Origin: Oryzias latipes | Taxonomy: Eukaryota > Chordata > Actinopteri > Beloniformes > Adrianichthyidae | Reading direction: 5' to 3' | Length of the DNA: 64,000 bases | Assembly (NCBI RefSeq): GCF_002234675.1 | Contig: NC_019867.2 | Span: 372,001 to 436,000, forward strand | Shown here: positions 46,705-58,800 of the stretch, piece after piece | Layout: every line of letters starts with the position of its first letter | How positions within the stretch are numbered: position 1 is the stretch's first letter | Program-made: the position numbers and the translations under genes | The notes under the pieces: model-generated | What the model was told of the DNA's origin: nothing | Seen by the model: only the letters and a program-made list of their open reading frames with translations | Database searches by the model: none

Positions 46705-46876
46705 GAAGGGTTAACCCTTGTGCTATCTTAGATGACCCCCCCCCCCCCCCCTTCCATTGAGGTGTTCCCCCCACCATGACAAAGGTGGATAAAGGTGGAA
46801 AGATTTCATGTAATCTATGGACACCAGTGAAGATCACAAATCATTGAAGAAAAAAGGTTCAGAGCTCTGTCTAGTG

Positions 46877-47986
46877 CAGGGGTCGGGAACCTATGGCTCG
46901 CGAGCCATATATGGCTCTTTTGATGGTCACATGTGGCTCGCAGACACATTTTTAATTTTTTCTTTTTCATTAGACCAGTCCTTCTCGGGCGCGATGCGAT
47001 GGCAGAGGCGCGCAGTAGTAGCGGTGCTTGGAGAGAAGGATCTGCGCCAGCATTATCACTTTACTATTATCTATTAATTCACAGAGTTTGTACCACCCGG
47101 AAACCTGTGAATTGCCGTGCCTAAAACTGCGCGCTCCCGTCTCTGAGAAAGAGCGCGCAGATGCGGGGACGGGATGTGTGAGGGAGAAAGCAGAGGGTGG
47201 GGGTGAGGGGTTGTGGGGACAGCAGGTGAACCGCGCAGGGATTGTAAAAACATAAAACCTGCTGCCCGTCACTCACTGCAGCGTGTGAGTGTGTGTTTGG
47301 CTCCACGTCTGCATGTGAGCAGTCTGTCTCACATCTACAGAACATTCAGACCTAAGATCACGTTTAAAGTCTCAACGCCTGAACGAAGCAGAAACTCACC
47401 ACGTATCAACCAGACTAGACCATCAGCAGAACCACCACGAGAAATACTCATCATTTATTAGCAACAGCATAACAATGTTATTAAAAATAATCCACAGACT
47501 TATTGTACTTTAAAAGTGTTGAAATTATATCAAATGCACACATTCACTTGAATATTTAGTTTTAAACATATTGTAGCGGACTGAGTTTAACTTGGCTGTT
47601 GGGCCGCGTTAAAAGTTCTGGAGTTCCTTGAACGCATCAAGCACAGATCTGATTGGCTCTTAGTTCTGTCGCTCAGCCTGTTGTTAGTTAATTTGGACCA
47701 ATGGGGTTCAGCTATGGGCCGAATAAGGGAAATGGGAGGCCTGGAGCGGGAGGGGGGAATATAAAGTTGGGAGAAGTGCTCTCGTCTCGGCAGGAGAGAT
47801 TCAGGAGCTGCTGAATTAATTTACGGCATTTGTTACAGCCTGCATTAACCAGAATAAAGAACCTTAAAAGAGGTTAAGTCTCCATGTGGGAAAAGGACAC
47901 TACATTATTGTATGGCTTTTTCGAAATTACATTTAAAAATATGTGGCGTTTATGGCTCTCTTGGCCAAAAAGGTTCCCGACCCCTG
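46877..47986. mobile_element. hAT element A (CAGGGGTCGGGAACC), 1,110 bp
   Basis: Perfect 16-bp terminal inverted repeats CAGGGGTCGGGAACCT / AGGTTCCCGACCCCTG and a perfect 8-bp target duplication GTCTAGTG (46,869-46,876 and 47,987-47,994). Subterminal sequence TATGGCTCGCGAGCCATATA contains short inverted words and repeats of GGCTC. No transposase frame, so non-autonomous. Confidence 0.88.
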
Positions 47987-48055
47987 GTCTAGTGGGTCTA
48001 GATGACCCAACTGTCTAGTGGGTCTAGATGACCCAACTGTCTAGTGGGTCTACAT

Positions 48056-54909: not shown

Positions 54910-55300
54910 TCCTCCCGCAGGTCAGACGCCTCCTCCCGCAGGTCAGACTCCTCCTCCCGCAGGTCAGACGCCTCCTCCCGCAGGTCAGACTCCTCCTCCC
55001 GCAGGTCAGACTCCTCCTCCCGCAGGTCAGACGCCTCCTCCCGCAGGTCAGACGCCTCCTCCCGCAGGTCAGACGCCTCCTCCCGCAGGTCAGACTCCTC
55101 CTCCCGCAGGTCAGACTCCTCCTCCCGCAGGTCAGACGCCTCCTCCCGCAGGTCAGACGCCTCCTCCCGCAGGTCAGACTCCTCCTCCCGCAGGTCAGAC
55201 TCCTCCTCCCGCAGGTCAGACGCCTCCTCCCGCAGGTCAGACTCCTCCTCCCGCAGGTCAGACGCCTCCTCCCGCAGGTCAGACGCCTCCTCCTGCAGGT
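54910..55300. repeat. 21-bp minisatellite immediately upstream of FTCD
   Basis: About 18.5 units, GTCAGACGCCTCCTCCCGCA plus G, with GACGCC and GACTCC variants alternating irregularly. It starts about 85 bp upstream of the FTCD start codon, so it lies in the 5' UTR or core promoter. The 21-bp period keeps five or six frames open, producing long artefactual frames (for example TPPPAGQ or EEASDLR repeats). Confidence 0.95.
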
Positions 55301-55862
55301 GGCGGTGGAGCAGACGCTGCAAGACTCTTTCTGCTTTACTAAATGGAGACATGTCTGAGTCCAAACATGAATGTTTGATCTGGGATGAAGTTCAGGGTCC
55401 CACATGCCCCCCCCCCCCTGTTGATTCAGAGGGTCAAAGGGCAGCAGAGTCCTAGCTGCTGGGATGAACGTTCAACCACAGGGCCGGAGTCCGATAGTAC
55501 TGTTGGGTGATGCAGAACCAGAACCCCGGCAGCCTTTCAGAAGAGGAAACTCCATCTCTGCTCCCATGACTGAGTATCACCCTCCCCAGGAAGGAAAATC
55601 CTCCTGGAGCAGAGTCCCGTCAGGAGCTTCTGGCTGTTCGGTTGGAGGAAGACTCTAAAGGTCTTTAGTCCTGACCTGCCATGCCACTTCCTGTTTCTTT
55701 GTAGTAAACTCATTCATCTGATCTTTCTTTACTGTGTTTTGTTGCGGTTCCGGTTCCGTCCAGCAGGTGGCGGTGAGGCGGATTCTGGGTCCCTTAAACC
55801 CACGAACAAGAGCAGAAGCAGCCGGTGACACTCTGCTGCGCCTCACCTTCATCACCTTCATC
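55301..55862. other. Intergenic region between FTCD and the frataxin candidate exon 1
   Basis: Divergent arrangement: FTCD leaves to the left, frataxin to the right. Contains a C10 run near 55,408. No coding exon recognised; probably holds both promoters. Confidence 0.4.
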
Positions 55863-58800
55863 ATGTTCCTGAGCGGCAGCGCGCTGCGCGTGTCCGCTAA
55901 GGTGTTTCCGCGGTCCGCTAGGAGAGGCATGGTCACGTGGCAGCAGGTAACCCGCGGTTAACGTAACAGTGCAGCTGAAACCAAACTCTGATCCCGACTT
56001 TGTTCCAGCTCCCGACTTCCGCCGTAGCGCCGGACTGGGCGGGAATCGAACCGCCGACCCGCAGACACAGAACCGCCAGACCGGCCCACGCGGTCTGGCT
56101 GTTGTCCAGAGGAATTCACCTGAGCCCCGGGGGGCGGAGTCAGGGGGAACCGGGCCCGGTCAGGTAAATTGCGGTCACTCTGCGTGGTGGGAGGGGTCAC
56201 GAGTGCCACCAATCCCACAATGCTTTGCGGTCATTGAAAGCCAGAATTGATCATTATTAACCCTTGTGCTATCTTAGATGACCCCCCCTTCCATTGAGGT
56301 GTTCTCCCTACCATGACAAAGGTGGATAAAGGTGGAAAGATTTCATGTAATCCATGGACACCAGTGAAGATCACAAATCATTGAAGAAAAAAGGTTCAGA
56401 GCACTGTCTAGTGGGTCTAGATGACCCAACTGTCTAGTGGATCTAGACCAGTGTTTTTCAACCAGTGTGCCGTGGGAGATGGTCAAGTGTGCCGTGAAAA
56501 ATTGCCCTCATTAACTGATCTAAAAGCAATTACCATCTCCAGAAAATCAGCTCTTTGTTCATCCAAACAGGCCCTGAACACTGAGAAGTTAAGAATTTGA
56601 AATATCATAAAATTATTTTTTCTTTGTGTTTATATGATTCTATTAAAGACATTTTGATAAGAATGACGGGATACCGCGATTTAGCTGCAGCTATAAGTGT
56701 GTAAGGAAAAGTCCCGCCCCTTTAACTGTCTCCACCAATCATTCTTGAAGGCTTAATCACATGTCATCAGTCTGACCAATCAGAAGTGGTTAAAGTATTC
56801 ACTTCCTTGTTTCGATTTAGCGCAAAAAAGTCTCTGTTCTAACAAAAATACCAGCTAAAGCTCGTCTTTAGCGGTGTAGCTTTCCACAGAATCTGGTATC
56901 AGACTGTGGAACAAGAGAACAAAACCATGAAGCTCAAAGACGCTGGTCTTTCTGCGGTCGGCGGATTACGGGCACTACATCTCCCATGATGCAGTAAAGT
57001 GACTGTCTTAGCGCACAATGAGTCTCTCCTCTTAACGTCTTAAAACAACGAACACACATCAAACAGTTTTTGAATCTTTTGACTTAATCTTTAATACATC
57101 TTTAAGAAAAACAGCTGCAGCTTCCAGCGTTTTCTGCAACAATTATCACAAAAATGCATGTGAGATTGTGGAGGGACTGTAGATCAATACAGACTGAACT
57201 TTTTATTTTTATTTTATTTATCTATTTTTTTGGATGCTGGTGTGCCGCGGGATTTTTGTCAAGGTTAAAGTGTGCCGTGGCTCAAAAAAGGTTGAAAAAC
57301 ACTGATCTAGATGACCCATCTCCCAACGTTAAAGTGCCTAGGATAGAACAAGGGTTACTAATGTTAGCATGACACAGCAGAAAAGGATCTTTTGTAGTCA
57401 CTGCTACATTTGTAGTCCGTTGCTCAGAGACGACCCTATAGAGAGAAATTAGACTCAGTCGGATTTGTGCGTAATTCTTGATTTGTGCGTAAATTAGGAT
57501 TTGTGCGTGATTTGTTACTCACATAATACGTTTTGTGTATAAGTTAAAAAAATACAAAATGCAATTTACGTATGCACAAATTAAGATTACAACAGCTTGA
57601 AACTACTTACACACACACACATCTTTAAAAAACACGCACGAATCCCTTGTTACGCACACACGAAGCCAAAGTTACGCACGGATCTACCCTGAGACTGTTT
57701 TAACGTCTCACAAATTCGTCCGTAAGTGCTGCGTTTAAATACCAGTGGAATGCTCGGTCATTAGAATTTTCCTATATTTAACTTATACACAAAACGGATT
57801 ATGTGAGTAACAAATCACGCACAAATCCAAATTTATGCACAAATCCGACTGAGTCTAATTTCTCTCCAGACGACCCCGACTATCATCTTACATTCAGTGA
57901 GAAAAGACCAAGGAGATGATCTCTGAGAACCGTTAACATCATCGCCATAGAAACGCTCACCTCCTTTAAATACCTGGGAGTACAGGTGGAACGTCTGCTG
58001 AACTGGAACCCTGACTCTCTCTGGGCCCGTCTGGCCCAAAGGAGGCACTTTTGACCACGTCTGAGTTTCTTTGGTGTCAGCGGCCGATGATGTGGACCTT
58101 TGACTCATCAGGACTTGAAGGCATCATCCAAACGGTCTGTGTGTCTGTTCCAAACCAAAACAGGAGTGGCAACACGGTGAAATCAGCCATGAAGGTCATT
58201 GGTACACGGGAAACTCCATCTGTGTGTTCCGTGACACGTCTGGGTCATGAGATCCTCAGTGATCCATCTCAGATTCTGTCTTCTGACTTTGAATTATTGC
58301 CATCTGCTTCAGAGCAGCTGAACATGAAACCAACCGAGATAAGAAGGTGTTGGTTCCATGAACAAACGGTACCGGTCCAGAACGGCCTCTGGCTGTTGTT
58401 TATTCCGCTCTGTGTTGTAGCTGTGGGCTCCTCGGCCCAGGACAAATGTCCCTCACGGGACGGTAAAGTATTGATGATGGTGGTGGGTTGTGGAAACCAC
58501 GGCTGTGTCCAAATCTCAGGGCGGCGTTCTTCCTGGCTGCATTTGAAGTCGCTTACGTCACGGCGCCGCGACAAGTGCGGTCCAAATCCAACGGATACGG
58601 CCTTTTTCTAAATTCAAGGATTGGTCTGGGGAATCCTTCTATGCTGTCCATATCCCAAGATGCATTGCGGCCGAGCCCGGAGATTTTTTGACAACAATGG
58701 CGGACTGTGAAGCGGAACCTGGACTTGGAGCTAATTTTTAGACTTACTGCAAGATTAAAAGTTAAGCCAGGTAGATTTTGAGCTCCATGCCTGGTTCACT

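What the first reader, a model, noticed from the sequence alone, without database searches (positions are those of the whole stretch)
46869..57312. Three independent hAT insertions into the same TCTAG target motif of one MITE family
MITE copies 3 and 4 both carry hAT elements in their GTCTAGTGGGTCTAGATGACC segment. The target duplications are GTCTAGTG (perfect), GTCTACAT/GTCTAGAT and ATCTAGAC/ATCTAGAT. Two hAT families are involved, and family B is present in opposite orientations, so these are separate events. All three sites fit nnnTAnnn, the target consensus reported for the Buster branch of hAT transposases (established knowledge). The MITE seems to act as a landing pad: its tandem 26-bp repeat multiplies the preferred target and shields genes.
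Basis: partly seen in the sequence, partly recalled or inferred. Interest (0 to 1): 0.72.

Follow-up and report, generated by a model that had tools for sequence, protein, structure and literature searches.

The report
MITE hotspot for nested hAT insertions
In this genome a short and very abundant mobile element carries two neighbouring target words that other jumping genes favour, so at least two jumping-gene families have inserted into the same spot again and again, each mostly choosing its own word.

Summary
One hAT-A and two hAT-B insertions sit in two MITE copies, at the stated coordinates and with the stated 8-bp duplications. The flanks of the two MITE loci do not align.

Exact counts over the whole 734-Mb genome show a real hotspot: hAT-B at MITE site 2 (GTCTAGAT) 417 times, hAT-A at site 1 (GTCTAGTG) 94 times. 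In the fetched samples, nested copies lie in both orientations (A 11:11 of 22; B 15:5 of 20), and nested hAT-B are as diverse as others, so most are separate events.

Main cause: target word. 37 of 40 sampled ends of each family fit nnnTAnnn, and 56% of all GTCTAGAT lie in the MITE context. hAT-B still uses that 8-mer 2.9 times more there than elsewhere.

Unexpected: the families split two sites that start 9 bp apart, hAT-A 94:6 for site 1 and hAT-B 417:25 for site 2. The cause is open.

Gene shielding and a role of the 26-bp tandem are not supported. Buster membership is target-consistent only; no transposase was examined.

The parts
46714..48921 (+). MITE copy 3 (ACCCTTGTG...CACAAGGG), TTA at 46711-46713 and 48922-48924, two nested hATs
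46869..46876 (+). MITE site 1, left target duplication GTCTAGTG
46877..47986 (+). non-autonomous hAT-A, 1110 bp, ends CAGGGGTCGGGAACC / GGTTCCCGACCCCTG
   Evidence: no Pfam match in six frames
47987..47994 (+). right target duplication GTCTAGTG
47987..48052 (+). 26-bp tandem units of the MITE (2.5 copies)
48048..48055 (+). MITE site 2, left target duplication GTCTACAT
48056..48871 (+). non-autonomous hAT-B, 816 bp, one branch of the hAT-B tree; right end diverged from the exact TIR
   Evidence: no Pfam match in six frames
48872..48879 (+). right target duplication GTCTAGAT
56260..57354 (+). MITE copy 4, TTA at 56257-56259 and 57355-57357, one nested hAT
56441..56448 (+). MITE site 2, left target duplication ATCTAGAC
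56449..57304 (-). non-autonomous hAT-B, 856 bp, another branch of the tree, opposite orientation to the copy in MITE copy 3
57305..57312 (+). right target duplication ATCTAGAT
30239..30444 (+). MITE copy 2, solo, one GTCTAGTGGGTCTAGATGACC unit, no nested hAT (empty-site reference)
26801..27687 (+). MITE copy 1, cut off before the target segment and interrupted at about 26922-27648 by a LINE-like 3' end

Best explanation
A very abundant TTA-flanked MITE carries, in one 21-bp segment, two 8-mers that start 9 bp apart (site 1 GTCTAGTG, site 2 GTCTAGAT). Both resemble the nTCTAGAn-like target of hAT transposases with nnnTAnnn duplications. Non-autonomous hAT-A and hAT-B, moved in trans by transposases encoded elsewhere (inferred), inserted there repeatedly and independently. 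Choice of the 8-mer by each transposase is the main driver, because over half of all GTCTAGAT in the genome lie in this MITE; the surrounding sequence adds about three-fold for hAT-B. hAT-A mostly takes site 1, hAT-B mostly site 2. Shown: junctions, duplications, orientations in samples, counts, the split. Inferred: that transposase choice at insertion, not later loss, makes the pattern.
For: Exact counts, both strands: hAT-B end 6021, hAT-A end 2867, site 2 with B 417, site 1 with A 94, site 2 with A 6, site 1 with B 25. GTCTAGAT 32,701, of which GTGGGTCTAGAT 18,212. GTCTAGAT with B 532: 417 of 18,212 inside (2.29%), 115 of 14,489 outside (0.79%), ratio 2.9. GTCTAGTG with A 120, 94 of them in the MITE context. 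Logos of both families about nTYTARAn. 6 of 40 sampled hAT-B ends are in the MITE, which is about 0.6% of the sequence (6 copies in 20 stretches). Of 20 fetched site-2 loci, 14 have a perfect second duplication and 2 have one mismatch. 22 fetched site-1 hAT-A loci: 11 in each orientation. 17 nested hAT-B: mean identity 88.3%; 16 non-MITE hAT-B: 88.5%. A third hAT family sits in site 1 of one of the 6 MITE copies in the arbitrary stretches.
Against: Additive weight matrices from 34-40 non-MITE insertions put under 1% of hAT-B insertions at site 2 and do not predict the split; the training sets are small. 0 of 40 sampled hAT-A ends lie in the MITE. Nested hAT-B orientation is 15 to 5, p = 0.04. 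The outside set of GTCTAGAT contains MITE variants and second duplication copies, so 2.9 is approximate.
Confidence: 0.85

Rival explanations
1. Composite amplification: a MITE that already carried a nested hAT was copied many times by the MITE's transposase, so the nested cases go back to one or few events.
For: Window copy 4 and L029 carry 97% identical hAT-B at the same site and in the same orientation; the most alike pair of 17 nested hAT-B is 98.7% identical. Some co-amplification is possible.
Against: 22 hAT-A at site 1 lie 11 to 11 in both orientations and are scattered over the tree of hAT-A ends. Nested hAT-B covers several branches, both orientations, and is as diverse as non-MITE hAT-B.
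Confidence: 0.06
2. The MITE context itself (extended target, DNA shape or chromatin) makes the site hot, over and above the 8-mer.
For: hAT-B uses the same 8-mer 2.9 times more in the MITE context than outside. In non-MITE hAT-A insertions the third base outside the duplication is A or T in 59 of 60 half sites; site 1 meets this on both sides, site 2 has C at +3.
Against: hAT-A shows no MITE excess at GTCTAGAT: 6 of 18,212 inside, 7 of 14,489 outside. The additive 16-mer model does not reproduce the split.
Confidence: 0.35
3. Landing pad with a benefit to the host: the MITE draws hATs away from genes and its tandem repeat multiplies targets.
For: At least 417 of 6021 exact hAT-B ends lie at one MITE site.
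Against: Target preference explains the nesting without any benefit. Tandem units look uncommon (one pair among 100 listed places) and are not needed. Benefit was not testable here.
Confidence: 0.05
4. Survival bias: hATs insert widely, but copies nested in a MITE are kept because they do no harm.
For: General expectation only; no call bears on it.
Against: It does not explain why the two families use different sites of the same MITE (94:6 against 25:417).
Confidence: 0.05

Closest known systems
hAT elements of the Buster group (TcBuster, Mar)
   Same: 8-bp duplications of consensus nnnTAnnn, as stated for TcBuster (PMC3499496, passages read) and for Mar and Buster (PMC3517528, passages read). 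The hAT-B end resembles the TcBuster end as I recall it (no call).
   Different: No transposase examined. Here the target is sharper (about nTYTARAn) and one MITE supplies a large share of the sites.
nTCTAGAn target preference of Charlie-type mammalian hATs
   Same: The same optimal word, from recall only.
   Different: Recalled, not seen in a call; in the one paper search for that string none of the 8 listed rows held it.
PIF/Harbinger-type MITEs with TTA duplications
   Same: TTA beside 12 of 12 left ends and 28 of 32 right ends read (each list holds at least one copy twice through overlapping loci).
   Different: Superfamily not shown; a TA duplication is not excluded.

Membership tests
hAT superfamily (hAT-A, hAT-B) | 8-bp target duplication | tested here: met
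   Flanks agree with 0-2 mismatches in 20 of 20 hAT-B and 0-3 in 20 of 20 hAT-A
hAT superfamily (hAT-A, hAT-B) | short terminal inverted repeats beginning CAG (feature recalled) | tested here: met
   Both ends in the window hAT-A and hAT-B of copy 4; diverged right end in hAT-B of copy 3. The genome samples were selected on exact ends, so they do not test this
hAT superfamily (hAT-A, hAT-B) | hAT transposase, own or in trans | not tested
   Window hAT-A and copy-3 hAT-B: 0 Pfam matches in six frames each; copy-4 hAT-B not scanned; no search for autonomous partners
Buster group | nnnTAnnn target consensus | tested here: met
   37 of 40 hAT-B and 37 of 40 hAT-A single flanks; misses L040, L104, L108 and L049, L062, L110
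Buster group | transposase falls in the Buster clade | not tested
   no transposase was looked for
PIF/Harbinger MITE | 3-bp TTA/TWA duplication (feature recalled) | tested here: inconclusive
   TTA on both sides in most ends read, TA not excluded
piggyBac MITE | TTAA duplication (feature recalled) | tested here: not met
   14 of 32 right ends read TTAC, 11 TTAA, 3 TTAT, 4 no TTA (counted by eye)

The most novel reading that the evidence does not exclude
Two hAT families with nearly the same short target consensus read one 21-bp MITE segment differently: each prefers one of two TA sites that start 9 bp apart by more than ten to one. hAT transposases would then recognise an extended, non-additive target beyond the 8-bp duplication, and one MITE family would have become the main reservoir of optimal targets in a vertebrate genome.
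Probability: 0.4. Interest if true: 0.65.

Novelty: new variant of a known kind. Interest (0 to 1): 0.5.

Why it matters
A MITE context that holds 56% of all copies of a hAT's favoured 8-mer is a natural integration assay with thousands of near-identical targets. Per-site rates, orientation and extended target rules can be measured for any hAT family in this genome without an experiment. It also shows how the spread of one transposon can redirect the insertions of others.

Tried and rejected
Composite amplification was tested on samples and mostly rejected. One duplicated locus: copies 3 and 4 share no flanks. piggyBac TTAA for the MITE, my first guess, was dropped. An 8-mer matrix and a 16-mer matrix did not predict the split; bootstrap intervals for site 1/site 2 were 0.06-43.9 (A) and 0.19-118.9 (B). 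Search for the element strings in papers: 0 papers. Searches for nested hAT/MITE hotspots and medaka listed nothing on this MITE by title or start of abstract. Passages of PMC11008031 and PMC8721813 held nothing on it. The hAT phylogeny paper looked up by DOI is not held, so the Buster target is cited from papers that quote it. Rfam: no match in the window. Not done: genome counts of GTCTAGTG and GCACTGTCTAGTG (no searches left), so no inside/outside rate for hAT-A at site 1; gene annotation; autonomous elements; other species.

Selections: hAT-B sample = first 20 pairs of exact ends on C1, one 1.6-kb pair passed over, then 14 further pairs, 3 wider pairs (the passed-over one among them) and 3 unpaired ends, left end only. 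hAT-A sample = first 20 pairs, then the next 20 pairs without two pairs of 1.6 and 4 kb, left end only; unpaired hAT-A ends not taken. The FTCD scan gave the same single frame three times by mistake.
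Full report
What is there. The window is G000:C9:372001-436000 of a genome of 734,051,031 bases in 25 contigs; size and contig number suggest medaka, which is my inference. It holds four copies of a MITE family: copy 1 is cut off before the target segment, copy 2 is solo, copies 3 and 4 carry hATs. In copy 3, hAT-A (46877-47986) lies in GTCTAGTG with a perfect 8-bp duplication, and hAT-B (48056-48871) lies in GTCTACAT/GTCTAGAT. In copy 4 an inverted hAT-B (56449-57304) lies in ATCTAGAC/ATCTAGAT. 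The two hAT-B are 82% identical and fall in different branches of a tree of 22 hAT-B copies. The flanks of copies 3 and 4 do not align. The three events are separate.

Terms. In the unit GTCTAGTG-G-GTCTAGAT-GACC, GTCTAGTG is site 1 and GTCTAGAT is site 2; they start 9 bp apart. In the window hAT-A is at site 1 and both hAT-B are at site 2.

Targets in samples. From contig C1 I took 40 hAT-B ends and 40 hAT-A ends with exact 15-base termini (selection told under Tried and rejected). TA stands at positions 4-5 in 37 of 40 single flanks in each family; both logos read about nTYTARAn. Where both flanks were read, TA is present in at least one flank in 20 of 20 hAT-B and 19 of 20 hAT-A. 6 of 40 hAT-B ends and 0 of 40 hAT-A ends lie in this MITE. 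Twenty arbitrarily placed 10-kb stretches (199 kb without N) hold 6 MITE copies, about 0.6% of the sequence.

Whole-genome counts (exact, both strands, reversed control in brackets). MITE 21-mer 14,973 [0]. hAT-B end 6021 [4]. hAT-A end 2867 [2]. hAT-B at site 2: 417 [0]; at site 1: 25 [0]. hAT-A at site 1: 94 [0]; at site 2: 6 [0]. These are left junctions only; if each has a right one, about 14% of hAT-B ends and 7% of hAT-A ends lie at the favoured site; counted directly it is 417 of 6021 and 94 of 2867. The 2 x 2 table has odds ratio 261. The site-1 pattern has a 13-base and the site-2 pattern a 12-base context, so MITE variants are missed at both; the window's own hAT-A is missed by the site-1 pattern because its MITE reads GCTCTG, and its two hAT-B are missed by the site-2 pattern. 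A difference in how often each context is intact would shift both families the same way, so it cannot make opposite biases.

How much is the 8-mer? GTCTAGAT occurs 32,701 times [22,465], of which 18,212 [52] as GTGGGTCTAGAT: 56% lie in the MITE context. 532 [0] hAT-B ends follow GTCTAGAT, 417 of them in that context. Per site this is 2.29% inside and 0.79% outside, ratio 2.9; the outside set includes MITE variants and second duplication copies. For hAT-A, 13 [0] ends follow GTCTAGAT, 6 inside and 7 outside, so there is no MITE excess. 120 [0] hAT-A ends follow GTCTAGTG, 94 of them in the GCACTG context. Most of the hotspot thus follows from the 8-mer, and each family has its own favoured one.

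Independence. Of the 417 site-2 hAT-B junctions I fetched 20, on C2-C6. Right ends were found in 17: 14 with a perfect second duplication, 2 with one mismatch, and L086 with 3 mismatches running straight into another hAT-B; L073, L076 and L088 had none within about 1.1 kb. Orientation was 15 to 5 (p = 0.04). In 3 of the 20 (L073, L078, L088) another hAT-like end stands directly upstream in site 1, as in window copy 3. 17 of these elements have mean pairwise identity 88.3% (81.9-98.7), 16 non-MITE copies 88.5% (82.6-97.2). Of the 94 site-1 hAT-A junctions I fetched 22: 11 in each orientation, scattered over the tree of hAT-A ends; only left ends of about 150 bases were read, so their second duplications were not checked. 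One of the 6 MITE copies of the arbitrary stretches (L022:5665-6251) carries a third hAT family in site 1 with a perfect GTCTAGTG duplication. A single amplified composite cannot give this picture, though some copies may be co-amplified.

What decides the site? The third base outside the duplication is A or T in 59 of 60 non-MITE hAT-A half sites, while hAT-B has G in 19 of 50. Site 1 has A/T there on both sides; site 2 has C at +3, which is G read from that side and might keep hAT-A out. But the additive 16-mer matrix predicted site 1 to site 2 as 1.5 for hAT-A (observed 15.7) and 3.4 for hAT-B (observed 0.06), with wide intervals, and the 8-mer matrix put 0.9% of hAT-B at site 2. The rule is not additive, or the samples are too small. 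This is open.

Preferred target: yes. Tandem repeat as multiplier: not supported. Gene shielding: no evidence and no test. Buster: target-consistent (PMC3499496 and PMC3517528, passages read), transposase untested; hAT-A and copy-3 hAT-B have no Pfam match in six frames. The MITE has TTA beside most ends, which suggests PIF/Harbinger without proving it.

Not only the MITE. The two C1 samples also hold one case where hAT-B (L105) and hAT-A (L117) sit at the same CTCTAAAC of another repeat (upstream 60 bases differ at one place), and one where hAT-B sits in the duplication beside a hAT-A end (L094). Re-use of good targets is thus wider than this MITE.

Novelty. Nested insertion guided by target preference is known in kind (general knowledge). 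I found no paper on this MITE or on the split in the library held, which covers open-licence papers only.

Noticed in passing
L105 (C1:13096356-13096440) and L117 (C1:20216027-20216111): hAT-B and hAT-A ends lie beside the same CTCTAAAC of another repeat; the 60 bases upstream differ at one place. A second shared target of the two families.
   Followed up: no
L094 (C1:9377856-9377940) and L086: hAT-B next to a hAT-A-like end with 8 bases between (L094), and a hAT-B directly behind the duplication of another hAT-B (L086): target duplications seem to be re-used.
   Followed up: no
window 46423-46704 and 27685-27966: A 282-bp segment is present twice at 99.6% identity, just after the cut-off MITE copy 1 and just before MITE copy 3; perhaps a recent templated copy.
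   Followed up: partly
window 26922-27648: A LINE-like 3' end interrupts MITE copy 1; family not determined.
   Followed up: no
window 49201-53950, - strand: Formiminotransferase-cyclodeaminase (FTCD) gene between MITE copies 3 and 4 (Pfam FTCD and FTCD_N; one frame scanned).
   Followed up: partly
window 1-10541: A very long tandem array of a 29-bp unit, about 363 copies.
   Followed up: no
L022:5665-6251: A third hAT family (starts CACATGTGTCAAGCTC, ends GATACCCCTG) in site 1 of a MITE with perfect GTCTAGTG duplication.
   Followed up: partly
window 44362: Another hAT-like end (CAGTGTTTCCCAGCCCTGG); its element was not delimited.
   Followed up: no
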